Source: CAVSKL01 sp963728475 [NCBI: Candidatus Eiseniibacteriota bacterium] (lineage in GTDB: Bacteria; Eisenbacteria; RBG-16-71-46; JABDJR01). From it: DNA of 64,000 nucleotides. The stretch lies in contig CAVSKL010000004.1 of NCBI GenBank assembly GCA_963728475.1, positions 496,001-560,000 on the forward strand, read 5' to 3'. Shown one piece after another: positions 878-56,914 of this stretch (positions are counted from its first letter, which is position 1; the number at the start of each line of letters is the position of its first letter). The position numbers and the translations under genes are program-made. A model generated the notes under the pieces. The model had not been told where the DNA came from. It did not search any database and saw only the letters and a program-made list of their open reading frames with translations.

Positions 878-906
878 TTGACCGGCCCTACCAGATCTGG
901 TATTTA
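878..906 (+). promoter_or_regulatory. selA promoter with palindrome in the spacer
   Basis: TTGACC at 878-883 and TATTTA at 901-906 are separated by exactly 17 bp, a good sigma70-type arrangement. A perfect 14-bp palindrome, TACCAGATCTGGTA (889-902), fills the spacer and runs into the -10 box, as expected for a repressor operator. If this promoter is used, the transcript would begin around 912-915, so translation would start at the ATG at 915 with little or no leader. No Shine-Dalgarno sequence is seen before either candidate start. Promoter use and repression are inferred. Confidence 0.5.
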
Positions 907-2339
907 TGAGCGCCATGGAAAATGAACTCCGGGAACGACTTCGTCGCCTTCCCGGGGTCGACGCCGTCCTGGCGATCCTGGCCCTCGATCCTCCCCCCGC
1001 GGCCCCCCGGCTGCTCACGCGGCTCGTGCGCCGGGTGGTGGAGGAGGCCCGGACGGCCATCCGGGCGGGGCGGGCCGGATCCGGGACTCCCACGGCGGAG
1101 ACCCTGGCCGCGCGCGTCCGGGAACGGCTGGACGAGCTGGCGACGCCGCGCCCGGAACGGGTGGTCAACGCGACCGGGGTGCTGATCCACACCAACCTGG
1201 GCCGGGCTCCGCTGGCGGCGTCGGTGGTGGATCATCTGAGCCGCGTGGCGGCAGGGTACTCGGACCTGGAGATGGACGTGGAAGCGGGACAGCGGGGATC
1301 GCGCCAGGCGCATGTGATCGAGCTCCTCACCCTGCTCACCGGGGCCGAGGACGCGCTGGTCGTGAACAACAATGCGGCGGCGGTGATGCTCGCCCTGGCC
1401 GCGCTCGCCCGGGACCGCGAGGTGGTGATCTCCCGCGGCGAGCTGATCGAGATCGGGGGCTCGTTCCGGATCCCGGAGATCCTGGAGCAGAGCGGGGCGC
1501 GGCTTCGCGAGGTCGGCACCACCAACCGGACCCACCCGCGGGACTTCGAGGCGGCAGCGGGGCCGGAGACCGGGCTCCTGCTCAAGGTCCATACCTCCAA
1601 CTACCGGGTGGAGGGATTCACCGCCGAGGTCCCGCTGAGCGAGTTGGTGGAGATCGGACGCCGAAACCGGGTGCCGGTTCTGGTAGATTTGGGCAGCGGG
1701 GCGCTGGCCGACGTGGCCGCCGCGGGCATTCGCCCCGAGCCGCTGGTGGCGGACGTGGTCGCGGAAGGGCCGGACCTGGTCACCTTCAGCGGAGACAAGC
1801 TGCTCGGCGGTCCGCAGGCCGGGATCGTGGTGGGCACGAAGGAGGCGGTGGCGCGCCTCCGGAACCACCCGCTGGCCCGGGCGGTCCGCATCGACAAGTT
1901 GCTGCTGGCGGCGTTGCAGGCCACGCTCGCCGCCTATCTGGACGAGGAGCGCGCGCGTCGCGAGATCCCCGTCCTGCGCATGATCTTCGAGGCCCCGGAC
2001 GCGGTCCGGGCCCGGGCCGAGTCGCTGGCCCGCGCCATCCGCGAGACCGTGCCGGAGCCCGCTCCACGGGTGATGGTGGAGGACGCGAAAGGAGCGGTCG
2101 GGGGCGGCACCCTGCCCCTGGAGGGACTCACCACCAGCGTGGTGAGCCTCGATCCCGCTCCCCACGCCACCGCGGCCCGCTTCGAGCGGGCGCTACGGCA
2201 CGTTCGGCCGGCCCTGTTGGGCCGGATCCGGGAGGAAAAGGTTCTCCTGGACCTGCGGACGGTGGCCGTGGAGGAGGAGGGCCTGATCCCGGGTCTCGTG
2301 CGCGAGGCCTGGGCCACGGTCGTGTCCAGAGGAGCCTAG
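906..2339 (+). CDS. selA: L-seryl-tRNA(Sec) selenium transferase
   Basis: SelA is a PLP enzyme that converts seryl-tRNA(Sec) to selenocysteyl-tRNA(Sec) using selenophosphate. The 477-residue length, the N-terminal tRNA-binding helical region, and the central fold-type I domain match the family. The motif TFSGDKLLGGPQ places the PLP lysine at residue 298. GTTNRTH and DLGSGAL are further conserved PLP-domain motifs. The listed start is the first in-frame ATG; ATG at 915 is the alternative favoured by the upstream promoter. It ends 4 nt before smc, so the two may be co-transcribed. Its presence shows that the organism decodes some UGA codons as selenocysteine, which matters for the gene at 51619-52359. 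selB, selC and selD are not in this window. Confidence 0.95.
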   Translation: MSAMENELRERLRRLPGVDAVLAILALDPPPAAPRLLTRLVRRVVEEARTAIRAGRAGSGTPTAETLAARVRERLDELATPRPERVVNATGVLIHTNLGRAPLAASVVDHLSRVAAGYSDLEMDVEAGQRGSRQAHVIELLTLLTGAEDALVVNNNAAAVMLALAALARDREVVISRGELIEIGGSFRIPEILEQSGARLREVGTTNRTHPRDFEAAAGPETGLLLKVHTSNYRVEGFTAEVPLSELVEIGRRNRVPVLVDLGSGALADVAAAGIRPEPLVADVVAEGPDLVTFSGDKLLGGPQAGIVVGTKEAVARLRNHPLARAVRIDKLLLAALQATLAAYLDEERARREIPVLRMIFEAPDAVRARAESLARAIRETVPEPAPRVMVEDAKGAVGGGTLPLEGLTTSVVSLDPAPHATAARFERALRHVRPALLGRIREEKVLLDLRTVAVEEEGLIPGLVREAWATVVSRGA

Positions 2340-48727: not shown

Positions 48728-49654
48728 GTGCCCGTTTCCGGAGACCTCGACCGCCGGGTCCGGCTGGCCGCCTTTGCGTTCCTCGAGGAACAAACGATTC
48801 GCCACGGCGAAGTCCTGCCCCGGGACATCCTGGCGCGGGGGTTCGACTGGCAAGGGACCCGGGTCCCGTTCCTGGGGCCGCAGGGCATCTTCAAGCCGGC
48901 GGTCCTGCCGTACATCCCGCTCAGCATCACCACCGCCCCCGAGGTCCCGGGCAAACCCCGCCCTTACGACGATGAACATCGCCCCGACGGGTTGCTCCGC
49001 TACCGGTATCGCGGGACCGATCCGAGCCATCGGGACAACGCCGGCCTGCGCGAGGCCTATCGGAGCCGGACCCCGCTCATCTATTTCTTCGGCCTGGTCC
49101 CGGGCCGGTATCTCCCGGTATGGCCGGTCTTCATCGAACACGACGACCCGGCGGAACTCTGCTTCCACGTGACCGTGGATGACCGGCGGCTCTATTCGTT
49201 CGCGGAGGCGGAGGCCTCGGACCGGGTCGCCGAATCCAGACGCGCCTATGTGACGGTGCTGACCCAGCAGCGGGTGCACCAGACCGGCTTCCGGGAACGG
49301 GTGCTGCGGGCATACCGCGAGCAGTGCGGAATCTGCCGCCTGCGCCACGCCGAGCTCCTGGAGGCCGCGCACATCCTTCCGGACAAGCATCCGCGCGGCG
49401 AGCCGGTGGTCACCAACGGGATCGCGCTCTGCCGCCTGCACCACGCCGCCTTCGACCGGAACTTCATCGGCGTGCGGCCGGACTCGGTGATCGAGGTCCG
49501 GCGCGACATCCTCGAGGAGGAGGACGGACCCATGCTCCTCCACGGGTTGAAGGGCTTCCACGGAGCGCTGCTCCATACCCCGGCGGCACCGCGCAGCCGG
49601 CCCAATCCCGAGTTCCTGCGGGAGCGGTACGCGCTCTTCAGACAGGCGCTCTGA
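48728..49654 (+). CDS. HNH endonuclease domain protein
   Basis: About 308 residues. The C-terminal HNH fold is clear: CGICRLRHAELLEAAHILP, then NGIALCRLHHAAFD, giving the C-x2-C, H, N and C-x2-H-H pattern. The N-terminal 200 residues resemble those of putative restriction enzymes of the COG3440 type (VPFLGPQGIFKPAVL). No methyltransferase is next to it, so it might be a solitary defence nuclease with a modification-dependent target. The start is GTG 48728 (ATG 48701 inside the ALDH gene is possible). Confidence 0.8.
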   Translation: MPVSGDLDRRVRLAAFAFLEEQTIRHGEVLPRDILARGFDWQGTRVPFLGPQGIFKPAVLPYIPLSITTAPEVPGKPRPYDDEHRPDGLLRYRYRGTDPSHRDNAGLREAYRSRTPLIYFFGLVPGRYLPVWPVFIEHDDPAELCFHVTVDDRRLYSFAEAEASDRVAESRRAYVTVLTQQRVHQTGFRERVLRAYREQCGICRLRHAELLEAAHILPDKHPRGEPVVTNGIALCRLHHAAFDRNFIGVRPDSVIEVRRDILEEEDGPMLLHGLKGFHGALLHTPAAPRSRPNPEFLRERYALFRQAL

Positions 49655-49679
49655 CCGGCGCCGGGGACCCCGGGAAACA

Positions 49680-49716
49680 CCCGGGTATCTCATCGTATTG
49701 CAGATAGATACCCGGG
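49680..49716. terminator. Inverted repeat between convergent HNH and cytochrome genes
   Basis: CCCGGGTATCT (49680-49690) and AGATACCCGGG (49706-49716) pair over 11 bp; ATC/GAT inside extend the stem past a bulge. There is no T tract. It lies between convergent genes ending at 49654 and 49788, so a bidirectional terminator or mRNA-end stabiliser is likely. The arms share CCCGGGTATC with the repeat cores at 6340 and elsewhere. Confidence 0.5.
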
Positions 49717-49787
49717 CAGTCGCGTTTCGTCAGCCCGCCGCCGGGCGGCCGGGCGGGCGGACCGGCCCCCCGGAGCGCGACGGACCT

Positions 49788-51287
49788 TCAGCGGTCCAGC
49801 TTCACCATGCGGGCGACGGCGGTGGACCCTCCGGTGGTGACACGGGCGAAGTAGACCCCCGCCGGCGCCGGGGTTCCGGCGTCGTCCCGCCCGTCCCAGA
49901 CCAGGGTGTGCCGCCCCGGGGTCTGGGCGGCCGCGGTCAGCACCCGCACCCGCCGCCCCGAGGCGTCGAACACCGCGAGCAGGATCGGCGTGTCGTCGGC
50001 CACCGAGTAGTGGATCTCGGTGCGAACGCGGAAGGGGTTGGGGGCGGGCGCCACCCGCGCTCCCGGCCCCTCGCCCAACCCGCCGTCCGCGACGCCGGTC
50101 ACCACCAGCCCGTGCGGCCCCGCCCCTGAGGGGGTGTAGCCGTGGCACACGTCGCAGTTCCTCAGGGTGCCGGCATGACCCTGGAGCGCGGCGGCCTGGA
50201 GATTGTCCCGCGCCTCCCGCGAGGGGAGGATGGCGTGGGGGCTGTTGTGACAGGTGGGGCAATAGAGGTTCCCGTGGCCTCTGGAGTTCCGGTAGAGGGT
50301 ATTGGCCTCCTCGGCGTGGGCGGTGCCGTGGCAATCGCCGCAGCGAGGTTCCTGGAGCCACGGCTGGCGGCCGTTCTTGATGGTCTCGGCCACGTCGCGC
50401 ACGCTCCCGTGGCAGTTCTGGCAGACCAGGCCGAAGTCGGTGGCCATGGTGCCGCGCAGGCACTGGGTGGTGGGACCCGGGTGACATTGGTAGCAGTTGT
50501 TGGTCTCCTCGGAGTGCTGGTCGTGCATGGCCTCGGAAAGGCTGGGGAGGTTCGGCATGCCGGGGGTTCCGAGAGCGTTGCTGGCGTGGCAGCTCGCGCA
50601 CAGGACCGGCGTGGAAGTCGCGAGATGGGTGCCGTTCTCGTTGTCGTGAAGCCGGAGGATGGCGTGCTCCACCGTCTCGCCGGTACCGGGGTGGTGGCAG
50701 TTGGAGCACATCATCTCGTTCGAGATCGGCAGCACGATCCGGGTCTCGGCGATCTTCGCCGCCCCGTCGTAAGCCTCCAGGATCCCGAGCTGGAACGGGG
50801 CCGGGTTCACCAGGTCGTTGTCGGTGAAGGGGGTGAGGGGGATCCCGAAGGCGTCGAAGTGGTCGGACTTGGGATCGAGATTGCCGGAGAGACCCTTCCC
50901 GGCCAGGCCGACGTTGTCCGGAAGCGATGCCCCGAAGATCTGCGGGGCGTAGGTCCAGAAGTCGGTCTTTCCCACCGAGTACGTGTTGTTCTCAATCCGG
51001 TAGGTGACGGTATAGGGGTTCACCACGATCCCCGGCAAGGTGGACGCCGACCCGCGGAGGATGATCACGGCCCAGACGTTGTTGTACGGGGGAAGCACGG
51101 TCAAGTCCTGGAACCGGGCGTTCGCGCAGTGCATCCCGAGGTCGTTCCAGCCGATCACGATGTACGGTCCGAGGGCGGCCGGGGCGGCATCGTAGGGCGG
51201 GGGCGAGGCGAGGGCGGTGGGCACGGCGGTCAGGGCGAGGATCAGGACCAGCACGGCGAAAGCAGACCGACGGCGGATGGGAAGCAT
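49788..51287 (-). CDS. Secreted heptaheme cytochrome c with sorting domain
   Basis: A 499-residue protein. Residues 1-28 form a signal peptide. About 38-190 is a beta-rich N-terminal region with the segment GWNDLGMHC, which I recall from other large multiheme cytochromes. Seven CxxCH heme sites follow at 194, 230, 265, 289, 316, 343 and 378. Residues 412-499 are a sorting/FlgD-like domain (APNPFRVR ... VFDASGRRVRVL ... GVYFARV). It would carry electrons at or outside the outer membrane. The start is ATG 51287 with GGAGGAAAAG upstream. Heme attachment needs reduced cysteines, which links it in idea to the thiol oxidoreductase just upstream. Confidence 0.88.
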   Translation of the reverse strand: MLPIRRRSAFAVLVLILALTAVPTALASPPPYDAAPAALGPYIVIGWNDLGMHCANARFQDLTVLPPYNNVWAVIILRGSASTLPGIVVNPYTVTYRIENNTYSVGKTDFWTYAPQIFGASLPDNVGLAGKGLSGNLDPKSDHFDAFGIPLTPFTDNDLVNPAPFQLGILEAYDGAAKIAETRIVLPISNEMMCSNCHHPGTGETVEHAILRLHDNENGTHLATSTPVLCASCHASNALGTPGMPNLPSLSEAMHDQHSEETNNCYQCHPGPTTQCLRGTMATDFGLVCQNCHGSVRDVAETIKNGRQPWLQEPRCGDCHGTAHAEEANTLYRNSRGHGNLYCPTCHNSPHAILPSREARDNLQAAALQGHAGTLRNCDVCHGYTPSGAGPHGLVVTGVADGGLGEGPGARVAPAPNPFRVRTEIHYSVADDTPILLAVFDASGRRVRVLTAAAQTPGRHTLVWDGRDDAGTPAPAGVYFARVTTGGSTAVARMVKLDR

Positions 51288-51618
51288 GTTCTTTTCCTCC
51301 ACGGACCCGGTTTCGAGAACCGCCGAACCGGTTCCGGGGCCGGGGGCACGGGCCCTCCGCCGGAACCGGAAAGAGCGTGGCATCGTGTGTTCCCGAGGAA
51401 TGGACGCCGGAGGAGAAAGGGATAGGCGGAGAATCCGGTCCCCGCCCCATGGGGTGCGCGGACCGGTAGCGGGAGGAACGGGGGCACCGTCTCACCGAAT
51501 CTTCCCGGCCCGCGGACGATTCGTCAATGAGCGCGATCAAGAGGGCGATCCGTGTCAGGACCGGTCGACCGGTCCCCGGAGAGCGGCGCCGGCGCAAGCC
51601 GAACGGCCGGCCTGGGGG
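51288..51618. other. Intergenic region upstream of the heptaheme cytochrome
   Basis: No gene is supported in these 331 bp. It holds a perfect 10-bp inverted repeat (CCGGTTCCGG 51328-51337; CCGGAACCGG 51360-51369) about 40 nt before the cytochrome start, and a perfect 18-bp palindrome, GGACCGGTCGACCGGTCC (51558-51575), about 45 nt after the selenoprotein stop. The latter may end the selenoprotein transcript. I see no clear promoter. Confidence 0.55.
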
Positions 51619-52359
51619 CTAGTTCCCGCTCGAGTCCCGTTTCACCGCCCCGGCCTGGCGGACCAGGGTCTCGAGGACCGGGTACGGCTGCGCCCCCACC
51701 ACGAACCGGCCCCCGGCCTCGAAGGTGGGAACCGCGTTCACCCCCCGGCCGGTGGCCCGGGCCCAGTCCGCGTCGACCGCCCGGCTGAAGGTCCGCCGGT
51801 CGAGCACCCGGGCCGCTTCCTCGCGATCGAGTCCTACCGAGGAGGCCAGGTCGAGCAGCACCGCCCGGTTCCCGATGTTCCGCCCCTCGGCGAAGTAGGC
51901 GCGGAAGGCGGCGTCGTTGAACGCGGGGCCCTTCCCCTCGGACTCGGCCCACTTCCCCAGCTCCTGGGCCAAGCGGCTGTTGAAGGTGGAGTCGCGGTCG
52001 GCCATGGGGAGCCCCTCCTCCGCGGCCAGCGCCTTGAGCCGGGCCTGGGAGGCGGCGATCCGCCGCGCGGCCCCCGCCCCTCCCCCGAACAGCTCGGCGA
52101 GGCTTATCCCGTCTCCGGGCGTATCGGGGTGGAGCGGGAAGTGCACGTAATCCACGCGTACGTCGTATTCCTTCTGGAGTTTCTCAACACGGACCGTGCT
52201 GAGGTAGCACCAGGGTCAGACGTAGTCGCTGTAGACGACGAGAACGACGGGAGAGGCTCCCGCCTTGCCGGCGTGAGGTGACGACATGACGGCCCCGGTG
52301 GTGACGAGAAGGGCGGCGACGGCCGTGCCCAGGGCACGGCGCAGGGCGAACGAAGGCAT
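51619..52359 (-). CDS. Selenocysteine-containing DsbA/FrnE-family thiol oxidoreductase
   Basis: A 246-residue exported thioredoxin-fold protein whose in-frame TGA (52216-52218, codon 48) is read here as selenocysteine. Start ATG 52359 follows AAAGGAA. Residues 1-35 are a signal peptide (RR, then GTAVAALLVTTGAV). The strand VVLVVYSDYV leads into Sec48-Pro49-Trp50-Cys51-Tyr-Leu, the exact place of the Cys-Pro-Trp-Cys active site. An alpha-helical insert follows, and the fold ends with the cis-proline loop AVPTF (P211). Reading without Sec leaves only a C-terminal piece that lacks the active site. A SECIS-type hairpin follows the TGA at once, and selA is present at 906. Predicted periplasmic disulfide or reductase role; the partner is unknown, but the cytochrome next door is a candidate client. 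Confidence 0.9.
52183..52203 (-). promoter_or_regulatory. SECIS element of the selenoprotein gene
   Basis: Read on the minus strand, the 9-bp stem CTCAGCACG / CGTGTTGAG (one G-U pair) closes on GTC, so the apex reads G-GUC-C. The stem starts 12 nt and the apex 22 nt after the TGA. Bacterial SelB-binding hairpins lie in this range and present a G-U in a small loop; the E. coli fdhF loop also contains GGUC. The hairpin lies inside the coding sequence (codons 53-59), as is usual in bacteria. Confidence 0.8.
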
Positions 52360-52456
52360 GAGGTTCCTTTCACGCAGGCCGAACACGACCCGATCGGTCG
52401 AGTATGGCAGGACGCGGCCCCGGAGTCCATCCGCGGGTGCCCCGCCCCGCTCCGGC

Positions 52457-52610
52457 TCAATCGGACCCGGCCGTCCCCGCCCCGACCGGCTTGGTCCCGG
52501 ACGGCCGCGCCGCCGCCCGCCTGGGCGCCGCCCGCGCGAATCCGCCGTACTTCTTGAGTTCCTTCAGCCGGCACGCGGTAGAGATCCCGGGGGTGCGGCT
52601 GGGTGTTCAT
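52457..52610 (-). pseudogene. Small frameshifted ORF upstream of the selenoprotein
   Basis: ATG 52610 is preceded by a strong GAGGAGG at ideal spacing. The first 14 codons (MNTQPHPRDLYRVP) are mostly GC-ending; beyond them this frame switches to poor codons (GCT GAA GGA ACT CAA). At that point the +1 frame takes over with GC-ending codons and gives LKELKKYGGFARAAPRRAA up to a TGA at 52459-52457, in all about 50 residues. This looks like a small gene with a one-base indel, a sequencing error, or a programmed +1 shift. I do not recognise the product. Confidence 0.35.
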
Positions 52611-52747
52611 GGGCCCTCCTCGGGCCCGGCGGGCGGCGCCGGAAAGATGATCAATACGATACATTCTATTTCGTTGTGAAGAACCGATTTGCTATGAATG
52701 TTGAGTAGCACACCCCGGGGTAGGCGGCAAGGGGCGGGGAACGGCGA
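52611..52747. promoter_or_regulatory. AT-rich upstream region of the selenoprotein operon
   Basis: The stretch 52645-52700 is strikingly AT-rich for this genome. On the minus strand it contains TAGAAT (52668-52663), a good -10, without a clear -35 at 17 bp, and TATCGTATTGAT just downstream. This is the likely promoter and operator region for the small ORF and the selenoprotein gene, giving a leader of about 300 nt to the latter. Confidence 0.4.
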
Positions 52748-53680
52748 CTACCCGGTTTCGATCCGCTCCCCACCGGAGTAGACGTTGAACCGGTCGCCGC
52801 GGAGGAATCCGATCAGGGTGAGGCCGTGCTCGCGGGCCAGGTCCACCGCCAGCGTGGTGGGCGCCCCCACTGCGGCCAGGAACGGGATCCCGGCCAGGAG
52901 CGCCTTCTGCACCAGCTCGAAGCTGGCGCGACCGCTCACCAGGACGATCGTGCCGCTGAGGGGCAGGCGTGCTTCCAGGAACATCGCCCCCACCACCTTG
53001 TCCATGGCGTTGTGCCGCCCGACGTCCTCGCGGGAGAGAAGCAGCTCTCCGCCGGGTTCGAAGAGCGCGCTGGCGTGGAGGCCCCCGGTGCGGGCGAATC
53101 CCTCCTGGGCGCGGCGCGCCCGCCCGGGGAGCGCGCAGAGACGTTGCCGGTCCACCCGGAAGCCGCCCACCGGACGGGCCGGGCAGGCGGTGCGGACCAG
53201 ATCCAGCGAGGCCCGTCCGCAGATCCCGCAGCTCGAGGAGGTGTAGACGTTCCGGCTGAAGCGCCCGGGATCGAAGGACGCTCCCGGCCGGAGCCGCACG
53301 TTGATCACGTTGGCGCCCGGCGAATCCGGCCCCGCCGCGCAAGGCGCGATCGACTCCACCTGGGCGGGGTCGGTAAGCACGCCTTCCGAGACCAGGAACC
53401 CCGCGGCCAGCTCGCGGTCGTGGCCGGGGGTGCGCATGGTCACCGCCACCGAGTGGCGCCGTTCGCCTCCGGCCTCTTCGACCACCACCCGCACCTCCAT
53501 CGGCTCCTCGGCGGCGACCGCTTCGGAGCGGGAGCGGGCGGCGGCTCCCTCCACCGCGATCGCCTCGCGAAGTCCGGAAACGGCGTCCCCGCCCGGGGTG
53601 CCCGGCGCCGGCGCCGGCGGCTCCACCGGCTCCGCGATCTCGGGAGGGTACGCGGGGCGGTCGGGGGAACGGTCAGCCAC
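52748..53680 (-). CDS. fdhD: Formate dehydrogenase accessory sulfurtransferase
   Basis: FdhD transfers sulfur from IscS to the molybdenum/tungsten bis-MGD cofactor, which formate dehydrogenases need. The 310-residue protein has the conserved SSSCGICGR with C151 and C154, ELAAGFLVSEG, TGGLHASALF and DVGRHNAMDK. An N-terminal extension of about 35 residues is Pro-rich. The start is GTG 53680, overlapping the stop of the dehydrogenase gene by 8 nt, so the two are coupled, as their functions predict. Confidence 0.95.
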   Translation of the reverse strand: MADRSPDRPAYPPEIAEPVEPPAPAPGTPGGDAVSGLREAIAVEGAAARSRSEAVAAEEPMEVRVVVEEAGGERRHSVAVTMRTPGHDRELAAGFLVSEGVLTDPAQVESIAPCAAGPDSPGANVINVRLRPGASFDPGRFSRNVYTSSSCGICGRASLDLVRTACPARPVGGFRVDRQRLCALPGRARRAQEGFARTGGLHASALFEPGGELLLSREDVGRHNAMDKVVGAMFLEARLPLSGTIVLVSGRASFELVQKALLAGIPFLAAVGAPTTLAVDLAREHGLTLIGFLRGDRFNVYSGGERIETG

Positions 53681-55850
53681 GAGGGACCACCTCCACCGCG
53701 GCCTCGCGGTAGGCGGGAATGCCGCACACGGGGTCGGTGACCCCGCGCGGAACCAGGGTGTTGGCTTCCGGCCAGTGGAGGAGGGCGGTTCCGGGATGGA
53801 GCGGGCCGGGCCCTACCCGGAGGTCGAGGCTCCCGGTGGGGGAGCGGACGGTGACCGGGTCGCCCTCGGCCAGGCCCAGCCGGGCCATGTCCTCCGGAGC
53901 GAGGAGCACCTGGTCGCGGCCGATCCCGGCGAGCATGTCGCCCCCGTCGAAGACCATGCTGTTGAACTGCTTTCCCCGGCGGGTGAGGAGTCGGAAGTGT
54001 CCGGGCGGGGTCTCGCGCCGCGGCGGCTCGAGCGGGGTGAACCGCGCGCGGCCGTCGGGGAAGCCGAAGCGCCCATCGGCGCAGAGGCGCTCGCCGCCCC
54101 ACTGGAACTGGTCCCCCTTGGCGCGCAGGTGCTGGATGCCGTCGTAGAGCGGGACCACCCGGGCGATCTCCTCGCGGATGGCCGCGGTCGAGTCGAAGCG
54201 GATGCGTCCGGCCTCGCCGGGTTTGACCCGCTCGGCCAGCTCGACCAGGACCCGCCACTCGTCCCTCGCCCCGGCCACCCGGGGTCCGGGGATCTCGGGG
54301 TTGTAGATGATGCGCCGCTCGGTGGAGGTTTCGGTGTTGCCGCCGGCCATCTCGTAGCGGGTGGTGGCGGGAAGCACCAGCACGGTGTCGGCGGGATCCA
54401 CCATCATCTGCGGGTTGAGGACGATGTCGTGGTGAACGCGGAGGGGGATCCGCTCCAGGGCCTCCCGCACGTAGGCGGGGTCGGGGAGGACCCCGAAGAG
54501 GTTGCTCCCCACGCACCAGAGCGCGTCCACCTCGCCCCGCCAGGCGGCGTCCACCGTCTCCGCCGCGAAGTGTCCCTTCCAGTCCGGCACCGGGAAGCCC
54601 CACTTCGCGGCCAGCGCGGCCGCGCCCCCGGGCCCGGCGGGGGCGCCGCCGGGGAAGGTGTCGGGGACGCAGCCCATCTCCGCGCCCCCCTGGACCCCGG
54701 AGTGGCCGCGGATGGGCATGAGGCCCGACCCCGGCTTTCCCACCAGGCCCCGGGCGAGCGCGAGGTTCGCGATCGCCTTCACGTTCCGGACTCCGTGGGT
54801 GTGCATGGTGATCCCCATGGACCAGACGAAGACCGCGCTCCGGGCGGCGCCGACCATTCGCGCGAACTCGAGCATACTCTCCCGGCTCGCTCCGGAGGCG
54901 CGCTCCAGCTCCTCGAAGCTCTGCCCGGCCAGCGCCCGCTCCAGCTCGTCCCAGCCCGCGGTGTGGGCTTCCACGAACGCGCGGTCCACCCGCCCCTCGG
55001 CGATCAGGTGCTTCAGGGTTCCGTTCAGGAACGCGATGTCGCCGCCCACCCGGAGGGTGAAAAAAGCGTCGGCGATCCGGGTCCCCAGGAGAGCGGAGTC
55101 CACCGAGGAGGGCACCCAGTAGCGTTCCATCCCCGGCTCGCGGAAGGGGTTCACCACCGCCACCTTCGTCCCCGCCTTCTTGGCCAGGTGGAGGTACTTC
55201 ATCACCACCGGCTGGTTGTTGGCGGCGTCGCTTCCCAGGAACACCACCAGGTCGCTCCCGATCAGGTCGCGGTAGCTACAGGTGGTGGCCGCGAAACCCA
55301 CCGACTCCTTGAGGCCGGTGGTGGAGGGGGAGTGGCAGATGCGGGCGGAGTTGTCCACGTGGTTGGTGCCGAGATACCGCGCCACCTTCTGAGCCGCGTA
55401 GTAGGTCTCGTTGGCGGTCCCGCGCGAGACCAGGTAGAAGGCCAGCCGCCGGGGGTCGATTCCGCGGATGCGGGAAACGGCAAGCTCCATGGCCTCGGGC
55501 CAGGGGAGCGGGCGGAACCCGGAATCGCCGCGCCGGCGAACGAGCGGAACCGGGATGCGGCCGAGCTTGCGCAGCTCCCGCTCGCTCATCGCGGCCAACG
55601 CCGAGGCGTCCGCGGCCACCGCCGGATCCAGGGCGGGCATGGTGTTCAGCCGGAGGAGGTTCAGGCGCACCCAGCAGAGGTGGACCTCGGGCATGGTCCA
55701 GTCGCGCATGCCGCTGGTGCCCAGCGCGCAACCGTCGCAGACCCCGTCCCGGAGGATGCGCCAGGCGTAGCCGGGCCGGTCCCGGTTGGCCCACAGGGCT
55801 CGGGCGATTTCGCGGTAGGGGCCGGTCCGGCGGGCCAGCGTCCGCTTCAC
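53673..55850 (-). CDS. FdhF/YdeP-family molybdopterin oxidoreductase
   Basis: A 725-residue molybdopterin enzyme of the FdhF/YdeP branch (formate dehydrogenase-like). An N-terminal CDGCALG pair replaces the full 4Fe-4S motif of classical FdhF, as in YdeP relatives. The active-site region reads NSARICHSPSTTGLKESVG, with Cys where E. coli FdhF has selenocysteine. VVFLGSDAANNQP, GHSGVQGGAEMG and GGDMLAGIGRDQV are cofactor-binding segments; the molybdopterin-binding C-terminal beta domain is present. No Tat signal is seen, so it is cytoplasmic. The start is GTG 55850, overlapping the upstream stop (GTGA). With fdhD next to it, formate or an acid-stress substrate is likely. Confidence 0.88.
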   Translation of the reverse strand: MKRTLARRTGPYREIARALWANRDRPGYAWRILRDGVCDGCALGTSGMRDWTMPEVHLCWVRLNLLRLNTMPALDPAVAADASALAAMSERELRKLGRIPVPLVRRRGDSGFRPLPWPEAMELAVSRIRGIDPRRLAFYLVSRGTANETYYAAQKVARYLGTNHVDNSARICHSPSTTGLKESVGFAATTCSYRDLIGSDLVVFLGSDAANNQPVVMKYLHLAKKAGTKVAVVNPFREPGMERYWVPSSVDSALLGTRIADAFFTLRVGGDIAFLNGTLKHLIAEGRVDRAFVEAHTAGWDELERALAGQSFEELERASGASRESMLEFARMVGAARSAVFVWSMGITMHTHGVRNVKAIANLALARGLVGKPGSGLMPIRGHSGVQGGAEMGCVPDTFPGGAPAGPGGAAALAAKWGFPVPDWKGHFAAETVDAAWRGEVDALWCVGSNLFGVLPDPAYVREALERIPLRVHHDIVLNPQMMVDPADTVLVLPATTRYEMAGGNTETSTERRIIYNPEIPGPRVAGARDEWRVLVELAERVKPGEAGRIRFDSTAAIREEIARVVPLYDGIQHLRAKGDQFQWGGERLCADGRFGFPDGRARFTPLEPPRRETPPGHFRLLTRRGKQFNSMVFDGGDMLAGIGRDQVLLAPEDMARLGLAEGDPVTVRSPTGSLDLRVGPGPLHPGTALLHWPEANTLVPRGVTDPVCGIPAYREAAVEVVPRG

Positions 55851-56914
55851 TCGAAGCGGGTGAAGGTCACGTCCAGGTAGCGGCTCTGCTCGAGCGCCTT
55901 CTTCCACTGGACGAGAATGGGGCTCTGGTAGATCCCTTCCACCACGCATCCCCGCCCGGGCTGGAACTGGTCGCTCACCAGCAGGCTCACCTGGCGCTTC
56001 ATGCGCATGAGCCGGGCGGCGGGGAGCGCGAGGAACTTGTCCACCGCCCGCTCCAGGGCGGAGTCGGTCACCCCCAACGCGTCCATGATCGCGTTCAGGA
56101 CCTGGACGAAGTCGTACTTGGCGTAGTTGAGGGTCTTGACCGGAACCGTCCTCGGATCGAGAAGCATGTTCCGCCCCCGCTCGGCCACGAACCGGAACGG
56201 GTTGCGCAGCACCTCGGCCAGATCGTGCCGCATGAGGAGCGTCTCGTACTCGTTGACGGTGAGCGCGGCGTGGCGCTCGTTGGGGGCCAGCGAGATGTCG
56301 ACCCGCCCCTTGGTGATGTCCAGGGTTTCGATGAGATGGCAGATCTGGGCGTAGAGCCCGAACCGCGGATCCTTGAGGTTGACCGAGTCGATCGGGTGGA
56401 GCGAGGTCGGCACCTCGATCCGGACCCGGTCCACCACCTCTTCGCGGTCGTATCCGATCACGGTGGTGCGGCGGGTGCGCTGGGTGTGCTCGTGGACCCC
56501 GTCGAGGTCGATGAAGTAGACCGGCGAGCTGGGGCGGTTGACGTAGGTCACGCAGCTCCGGAGGCCGGAGCCGATGAAGGTGAGGTGGCTGTCGCCGTTC
56601 CGGGGCTCGATCAGGCGCTGGGCGTCGGTGAGCTCGCTCCGAAGGTGGAGCTGGTCGTGCCGGTAGTCGGCGTCCGGAGGAAAGATCCGCTGGAACCCGC
56701 CTACGAAGTTCTGGACGGTGTCGCGATCGTTGTTGAGGCGCGCGCAGAAGCTCTGCTCCAGGTACCCCGCGGTGGTGTGGTGGGAGCAGTAGACCGATTT
56801 GCGATAGCGGTTGAAGAAGTCCTCGACCTCGCCGGCCACGCGGCGGCCGACGTCGATGACGTCCAAGCGCGACCGCGGCCGAAGCTCGAGGGTAATCTCA
56901 GCAGGTGGCGACAT
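55847..56914 (-). CDS. UPF0047 (YjbQ)-like protein with a large unknown C-terminal domain
   Basis: A 355-residue protein. The first half (about 1-155) follows the YjbQ/UPF0047 pattern: YCSHHTTAGYLEQ, then DYRHDQLH, RNGDSHLTFIGSG and a VYFIDLDGVHEHTQR end. UPF0047 proteins are normally about 135 residues and can show thiamine-phosphate-synthase-like activity. The second half (about 160-355; DREEVVDRVRIEVPTSLHPIDSVNLKD onward) has no family that I recognise. It is coupled to the molybdopterin enzyme gene by a GTGA overlap, so a shared role is possible. ATG 56914 starts it. Confidence 0.7.
   Translation of the reverse strand: MSPPAEITLELRPRSRLDVIDVGRRVAGEVEDFFNRYRKSVYCSHHTTAGYLEQSFCARLNNDRDTVQNFVGGFQRIFPPDADYRHDQLHLRSELTDAQRLIEPRNGDSHLTFIGSGLRSCVTYVNRPSSPVYFIDLDGVHEHTQRTRRTTVIGYDREEVVDRVRIEVPTSLHPIDSVNLKDPRFGLYAQICHLIETLDITKGRVDISLAPNERHAALTVNEYETLLMRHDLAEVLRNPFRFVAERGRNMLLDPRTVPVKTLNYAKYDFVQVLNAIMDALGVTDSALERAVDKFLALPAARLMRMKRQVSLLVSDQFQPGRGCVVEGIYQSPILVQWKKALEQSRYLDVTFTRFE

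What the first reader, a model, noticed from the sequence alone, without database searches (positions are those of the whole stretch)
51619..52359. A periplasmic DsbA/FrnE-like selenoprotein hidden behind an in-frame TGA
The minus-strand frame contains one TGA (52216-52218) exactly where the first active-site cysteine of a DsbA/FrnE protein belongs, giving Sec-Pro-Trp-Cys. Upstream of the TGA the same frame holds a ribosome-binding site, ATG and a complete signal peptide; downstream it holds the rest of the fold with the cis-Pro loop. Standard annotation would call a truncated protein without its active site, so the selenoprotein would be missed. selA in the same window supports Sec decoding. 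DsbA-like selenoproteins are known as a class; this one, exported and beside a heptaheme cytochrome, appears worth describing.
Basis: partly seen in the sequence, partly recalled or inferred. Interest (0 to 1): 0.92.

Follow-up and report, generated by a model that had tools for sequence, protein, structure and literature searches.

The report
Exported DsbA-like selenoprotein, TGA-encoded active site
A bacterial gene that looks broken by a stop codon very probably encodes a complete disulfide-handling enzyme with selenium in its active site; the enzyme family is known, but this copy carries what looks like an export signal, which none of the relatives examined here has.

Summary
Observation confirmed. 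Minus-strand frame 51619-52359 holds one TGA (52216-52218); read through it gives a 246-aa DSBA-fold protein (Pfam 2.6e-36, match spans the TGA) with a U-P-W-C site. In 81 relatives the TGA column is TGA in 54, TGC/TGT in 27, nothing else. A SECIS-like hairpin (52183-52203) sits at the same place in Sec relatives with compensatory changes; Cys relatives pair there no better than shuffles. selB passes its cut-off in 24 of 25 Sec genomes and 4 of 25 Cys genomes. selA is in the window. DsbA-like UxxC selenoproteins (COG2761/PF01323) have been in print since 2005, so the selenoprotein is a member of a known class. Unusual is the N-terminus: a Shine-Dalgarno-preceded ATG and a signal-like stretch, seen in 0 of 142 relative loci, at least nine of them genomes counted twice. 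Best reading: an exported thiol/selenol-disulfide oxidoreductase. Sec incorporation, export and redox direction are inferred; the window's own selB/selC/selD could not be checked because no genome is held.

The parts
51619..52359 (-). DsbA/FrnE-like selenoprotein gene read through TGA (246 aa; coordinates include the stop)
52216..52218 (-). in-frame TGA, read as Sec48 (first position of the UPWC active site)
   Evidence: same column is TGA in 54 and TGC/TGT in 27 of 81 relatives
52183..52203 (-). putative bacterial SECIS hairpin: 9-bp stem, 3-nt loop GUC, loop G at +22 after the TGA
52255..52359 (-). N-terminal extension, signal-peptide-like (residues 1 to about 33-35; hydrophobic part about residues 9-25; possible cleavage after A33 or A35)
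   Evidence: start and hydrophobic segment. Cleavage site: inference. No signal-like N-terminus in 81 and 61 relative loci
52364..52370 (-). Shine-Dalgarno-like AAAGGAA before the ATG at 52359
906..2339 (+). selA, L-seryl-tRNA(Sec) selenium transferase
49788..51287 (-). neighbour: heptaheme c-type cytochrome (7 CxxCH) with FlgD-like/T9SS-like tail; likely start 51287 with a signal-like N-terminus
52748..53680 (-). neighbour: FdhD
53673..55949 (-). neighbour: FdhF/YdeP family molybdopterin oxidoreductase (open frame without internal TGA)

Best explanation
The gene encodes a DsbA-fold thiol/selenol-disulfide oxidoreductase of the FrnE-like (COG2761) family. SelB, guided by a SECIS hairpin whose loop lies 22 nt downstream, decodes the UGA as Sec48 (inferred; relatives give strong support). 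The N-terminal ~33 residues act as a signal peptide, so the mature domain works outside the cytoplasm (inferred from sequence). There the Sec48 selenolate, at the start of the first helix, attacks substrate disulfides and resolves through Cys51, the only cysteine in the protein (inferred from the fold). A reductase/isomerase role is more likely than a DsbA-type oxidase role, because a selenenylsulfide is generally more reducing than a disulfide (recalled chemistry, not tested; a lean, not part of the stated confidence). Substrates are unknown; the adjacent heptaheme cytochrome is a candidate by position only.
For: Domain match across the TGA; PDB relatives FrnE 5cnw/5cp1 and SCO1869 3gl5. Column 48 codon in 81 relatives: 54 TGA, 20 TGC, 7 TGT, 0 other. 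In 61 of 85 loci fetched later the column is TGA in 61; at least nine are genomes already in the first set, and these are best hits, not a fair sample: of 42 matches, 39 hold a TGA and three no in-frame stop, and only the best 30 were fetched. Hairpin in 55 TGA sequences (51 distinct): 89.7% of cells paired, 5 of 8 pairs with changes on both sides, 23 such cells; 0 of 500 shuffles as high for cells paired, double-change cells and covariation score. In 27 Cys sequences 51.5% paired, as in shuffles. Apical loop at +21/+22 in the best fold of 51 of 55 TGA and 4 of 27 Cys sequences; G at +22 in 53 of 54 TGA relatives and 4 of 27 Cys. selB over cut-off in 24 of 25 TGA and 4 of 25 Cys genomes (Fisher 7e-9). 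AlphaFold2 mean pLDDT 89.4, active site at the start of helix 49-64. Start: AAGGA before ATG 52359, none before the two other in-frame starts; 11 of 693 open ATGs in the window are as signal-like, 4 of 124 with SD, and those four lie at or near starts of predicted genes. Without residues 1-33 the protein begins 14 residues before Sec, where 66 of 81 and 48 of 61 relatives have an ATG.
Against: No selB, selC or selD seen for this organism: no genome is held. The window's hairpin alone is not significant (z -1.61, 11 of 200 shuffles as good); overall folding energy does not separate TGA from Cys relatives (p 0.39); four TGA relatives (L029, L047, L050, L053) do not show the loop at +21/+22 in their best fold; Rfam finds nothing over threshold in the window. 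The exported form rests on one sequence: 0 of 142 relative loci have a signal-like N-terminus. An internal ATG (residue 25) could give a cytosolic form, though it lacks an SD. No conserved neighbour supports a pathway.
Confidence: 0.78

Rival explanations
1. A selenoprotein of the same family that stays in the cytoplasm: translation starts at the internal ATG (residue 25, 52287), or the hydrophobic N-terminus is not a working signal, as in every relative examined.
For: 81 of 81 relatives of the first set and 61 of 61 of the second have a start codon 11-22 codons before Sec and none has a signal-like upstream start. Residue 25 is 23 codons before Sec, close to the usual start.
Against: The ATG at 52359 has AAGGA at good spacing, the ATG at residue 25 has no SD; only 11 of 693 open ATGs look as signal-like; between residue 25 and Sec there is no start codon where most relatives have theirs (sequence).
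Confidence: 0.17
2. A pseudogene or a sequencing error: a Cys codon became TGA and the gene is dead or misread.
For: A single nucleotide separates TGA from TGC/TGT, and the window is a single sequence.
Against: 54 of 81 relatives have TGA at the same column; the hairpin that goes with TGA is present here; third-position GC is 0.82 and 0.83 in the up to 60 codons before and after the TGA; selA is in the window.
Confidence: 0.03
3. TGA is read as another amino acid (a reassigned code).
For: One TGA is read in frame.
Against: Of nine in-frame TGAs that passed a composition filter in the window, only this one lies at an active-site motif; the rest look like shadow frames, judged by eye. The relatives have Cys codons or TGA only.
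Confidence: 0.01

Closest known systems
DsbA-like selenoprotein, COG2761 / PF01323, UxxC (PMC1088965, PMC1794560, PMC2398784; reviews PMC9312934 and PMC13188914, there 'DsbA-like protein form 1'); passages seen
   Same: PF01323 domain, Sec at the first active-site position (UxxC), Cys relatives, hairpin with a small G-containing loop directly after the TGA
   Different: N-terminal signal-like extension. 'signal peptide' does not occur in the main text of the five papers; 'periplasm' occurs only in one of them, twice, on other matters
FrnE of Deinococcus radiodurans (PDB 5cnw, 5cp1) and SCO1869 (3gl5)
   Same: fold (TM 0.73-0.76 to the query) and CPWC-type site, 30-32% identity
   Different: Cys, not Sec; the window protein has no cysteine besides C51
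DsbG-like / Rcas_1661 family thioredoxin-like (seleno)lipoprotein (NF041057)
   Same: thioredoxin-fold selenoprotein with UxxC, a lipoprotein by its name
   Different: window protein scores 49.8 bits against a cut-off of 190 and has no N-terminal Cys for lipid attachment

Membership tests
DsbA-like selenoprotein (PF01323/COG2761, UxxC) | PF01323 domain over the curated cut-off | tested here: met
   125.7 bits against 25.6
DsbA-like selenoprotein (PF01323/COG2761, UxxC) | in-frame TGA in place of the first active-site Cys, with Cys-containing relatives | tested here: met
   54 TGA, 27 Cys codons of 81
DsbA-like selenoprotein (PF01323/COG2761, UxxC) | bacterial SECIS directly downstream: stable hairpin, small apical loop with G | tested here: met
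   9-bp stem, loop GUC with G at +22; covariation in the family. Single-sequence z only -1.61
DsbA-like selenoprotein (PF01323/COG2761, UxxC) | Sec machinery in the same genome | tested here: inconclusive
   selA in the window; selB, selC, selD not testable, no genome held
DsbA-like selenoprotein (PF01323/COG2761, UxxC) | selenium in the purified protein | not testable with these tools
   needs mass spectrometry or selenium labelling
FrnE (Deinococcus type) | fold and sequence relation to FrnE | tested here: met
   phmmer 7.2e-23; Foldseek 1.8e-15
FrnE (Deinococcus type) | further cysteines beyond the CPWC site (recalled for FrnE; entry 5cp1 is titled a C239S mutant) | tested here: not met
   no cysteine besides Sec48 and C51
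NF041057 (seleno)lipoprotein | NCBIfam cut-off 190 bits | tested here: not met
   49.8 bits
Exported protein with a signal peptide | positive n-region, hydrophobic h-region, A-x-A-like cleavage site | tested here: met
   crude scoring of my own, no dedicated predictor at hand
Exported protein with a signal peptide | found outside the cytoplasm | not testable with these tools
   needs fractionation or a reporter fusion

The most novel reading that the evidence does not exclude
A lineage has moved an otherwise cytosolic Sec-DsbA (FrnE-like) enzyme into the periplasm by acquiring a signal peptide, giving an extracytoplasmic selenium-based disulfide reductase/isomerase, possibly keeping CxxCH cysteines of its neighbouring multiheme cytochrome reduced before haem attachment.
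Probability: 0.2. Interest if true: 0.65.

Novelty: new variant of a known kind. Interest (0 to 1): 0.42.

Why it matters
By the mechanical ORF list the gene would be called as a 178-aa fragment without its active site, so its annotation needs correcting. If it is exported, a FrnE-type Sec enzyme has been relocated to the compartment where disulfides are made and c-type cytochromes mature, and one can test what Sec adds to a DsbA-fold enzyme there. The family alignment also offers a natural experiment: the Cys forms do not keep the hairpin and 21 of 25 Cys genomes have no selB over cut-off.

Tried and rejected
Rfam on the whole window found nothing over threshold, so the SECIS case rests on the family alignment. 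Total folding energy of 30 nt after the codon did not differ between TGA and Cys relatives; pairing at the fixed position did (7.15 of 8 pairs against 4.04). Conserved neighbours were sought within 4.5 kb in the 81 loci, many of them short contigs: apart from the gene itself (51 loci) and an antisense shadow of it (23), no cluster reached more than 11 loci. Promoter and terminator scans of 49600-53000 found none. Placing the organism by its SMC protein in 16 genomes gave no close match (best full-length identity 36%), so the lineage is left open.

tRNA-Sec: 36 of 50 genomes pass the Rfam cut-off, but all 14 control genomes match at E 0.001 and 5 pass the cut-off, so I used 59 bits, chosen after seeing the scores: 20 of 25 TGA and 4 of 25 Cys genomes, the same four Cys genomes that have selB. 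The five TGA genomes below it (of L008, L024, L037, L047, L058) all have selB over cut-off. One TGA genome (L044) has no selB over cut-off but a 67.5-bit tRNA-Sec. For selB all 14 controls match at E 0.001 and 2 pass the cut-off. These searches took 50 of the 80 genome-contig loci (limit of 50 per call); L026 was left out as the genome of L020, and 29 others were simply not searched.

Of 85 loci fetched later, 24 distant Acidobacteriota-sample hits (L088-L111) miss the E 1e-30 and were dropped from its count; ten of L088-L098 are shown and the rest were not examined. In one search, L089, L090 and L095 also have TGA at the column and L088, L091-L094 and L096-L098 have Cys codons. The genome-contig scan kept the best 80 of 269 relatives, and one of its patterns demands Cys codons at the active site, so the TGA:Cys ratio is not a natural frequency. 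The alignment used the window and 44 of the 81 relatives.

Full report
What is there. The minus-strand frame 51619-52359 starts with ATG, ends with TAG and holds one TGA at 52216-52218. With TGA as Sec it is 246 residues, with U48-P-W-C51 the only Sec/Cys residues. The Pfam DSBA model matches residues 40-231, across the TGA, with 125.7 bits against a cut-off of 25.6. The closest solved structures by sequence are Deinococcus FrnE (5cnw, 5cp1; 7.2e-23) and SCO1869 (3gl5; 4.5e-17). AlphaFold2 on a 45-sequence alignment gives mean pLDDT 89.4 (residues 1-30 low), with residue 48 just before helix 49-64 and P211 just before strand 212-215; Foldseek ranks FrnE and SCO1869 at the top, TM 0.73-0.76 to the query. 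The list of ordinary ORFs has a 178-aa ORF from 52155, which misses the active site.

Is the TGA a Sec codon? Three lines say yes. First, one scan of genome contigs gave 80 loci (best of 269 relatives) and one of viral contigs gave one. The codon at the column of U48 is TGA in 54, TGC in 20 and TGT in 7 of these 81, and nothing else. In 61 of 85 loci fetched later by genome searches the column is TGA in 61 of 61. At least nine of these are genomes already in the first set, 24 distant loci were left out, and they are best hits: of the 42 matches, 39 hold a TGA and three no in-frame stop, and only the best 30 were fetched. Thirty-one columns are invariant in an alignment of the window and 44 relatives, including D45, the active site, FPLHP 74-78 and V210-P211.

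Second, the mRNA hairpin. In the window the stem CUCAGCACG/CGUGUUGAG with loop GUC lies at 52183-52203; the loop G is at +22 after the TGA. Alone it is not remarkable (z -1.61, 11 of 200 shuffles as good), and total folding energy does not separate TGA from Cys relatives (p 0.39). Position does: in the best fold the apical loop starts at +21 or +22 in 51 of 55 TGA sequences and 4 of 27 Cys sequences, and pairing at the fixed place is 7.15 of 8 pairs against 4.04, with at most 4.13 for TGA sequences at slid registers. On the alignment of 55 TGA sequences (51 distinct) 89.7% of cells pair, 5 of 8 pairs show changes on both sides, in 23 cells, and 0 of 500 shuffles reach the pairing, the double-change cells or the covariation score; slid registers reach at most 52.2%. 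In the 27 Cys sequences pairing is 51.5%, as in shuffles. G at +22 is found in 53 of 54 TGA relatives and 4 of 27 Cys relatives. The coding sequence is itself conserved here and shuffles ignore kinship, so the contrast between TGA and Cys relatives is the stronger argument. Features named for bacterial SECIS elements in PMC1088965 (passages: directly downstream of the UGA, small apical loop with a guanosine) are met.

Third, the machinery. In 50 of the genomes (25 with TGA, 25 with Cys), selB over its curated cut-off is found in 24 of 25 TGA genomes and 4 of 25 Cys genomes (tallied by hand; Fisher p 7e-9). Strong tRNA-Sec matches (over 59 bits, a bar chosen after seeing the scores) are found in 20 of 25 and 4 of 25, the four being the same Cys genomes (Fisher p 1e-5). 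A close pair shows it in small: L003 (Cys; no selB over cut-off, no strong tRNA-Sec, loop not at the place) and L012 (Sec; with all three) are sisters at 100/96 support. The tree of 82 rows needs two Sec/Cys changes; the direction Sec to Cys is an inference from a midpoint root. For the window itself only selA is seen (TIGR00474 553 bits); no genome is held, so selB, selC and selD remain untested.

What is different here: the N-terminus. In 81 of 81 and 61 of 61 relative loci a start codon lies 11-22 codons before Sec; at exactly 14 codons there is an ATG in 66 and 48 of them. No relative has a signal-like start further upstream: 0 of 81, 0 of 61. The window gene has no start codon within those 22 codons. 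Its ATG at 52359, 47 codons before Sec, has AAGGA at good spacing; the in-frame ATG at residue 25 and the GTG at 52386 have none. Residues 7-8 are arginines, followed by the uncharged stretch LGTAVAALLVTTGAV. As a yardstick, 11 of 693 open ATGs in the window, this one included, look at least as signal-like, and with a Shine-Dalgarno match 4 of 124: this gene, the heptaheme cytochrome (51287, inside the longer ORF), the M28 peptidase (39645) and the PMT_2 membrane protein (30747, second codon of the ORF). Cleavage after A33 would leave 14 residues before Sec, the usual length in relatives: the extension looks like a removable module. This is crude scoring and one sequence only.

Surroundings. 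Upstream on the same strand lie an FdhF/YdeP-family oxidoreductase (53673-55949) and FdhD (52748-53680); downstream a heptaheme c-type cytochrome with a FlgD-like/T9SS-like tail, likely start 51287. Gaps are 388 and 331 bases. Apart from the gene and its antisense shadow no gene family is found beside it in more than 11 of 81 loci, so a tie to the cytochrome is a guess from position.

How it most likely works. Supported by computation: the fold, the active-site arrangement, the Sec/Cys conservation. Inferred: SelB/SECIS decoding in this organism, export, and chemistry in which Sec48 attacks a substrate disulfide and Cys51 resolves. That Sec makes such a site more reducing is recalled, not tested; hence a lean to reductase or isomerase rather than oxidase.

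What is known. DsbA-like selenoproteins with UxxC were reported from the Sargasso Sea in 2005 as COG2761 (PMC1088965, passages), in bacterial genomes in 2006 (PMC1794560, passages), in the GOS data in 2008 as DsbA 1-3 (PMC2398784, passages; DsbA 3 is UxxV), and stand in reviews of 2022 and 2026 (PMC9312934, PMC13188914, passages). 'Signal peptide' does not occur in the main text of these five; 'periplasm' occurs in one, on other matters. A search for six terms around exported DsbA selenoproteins listed 20 of 27 papers holding at least five terms; none by title or start of abstract describes one. 'DsbA-like', 'selenoprotein' and 'FrnE' together gave no paper. The library holds open-licence papers only. 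A thioredoxin-fold (seleno)lipoprotein family is known (NF041057, listed as DsbG-like in PMC13188914), which this protein does not join (49.8 of 190 bits).

Verdict. The selenoprotein belongs to a known class; its likely export makes it a variant worth a short note and an experiment, not a new kind of system.

Noticed in passing
   Followed up: partly
L089, L090, L095: Distant relatives (28-31% identity) with TGA at the first position of a PYC/PFC site, perhaps another DsbA Sec subfamily.
   Followed up: no
window 49788-51287 (-): Heptaheme c-type cytochrome with a FlgD_ig / T9SS-like C-terminal tail; the ORF start at 51383 is probably too long, an SD-preceded signal-like start lies at 51287.
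   Followed up: partly
L001 (IMGVR_UViG_3300037076_000473, 41 kb): A contig filed as viral carries the Sec DsbA gene with TGA and hairpin; whether it is truly viral was not examined.
   Followed up: no
L020, L025, L035, L045: Four genomes with the Cys form still hold selB over cut-off and a strong tRNA-Sec, so there the Cys form is not explained by loss of the machinery.
   Followed up: no
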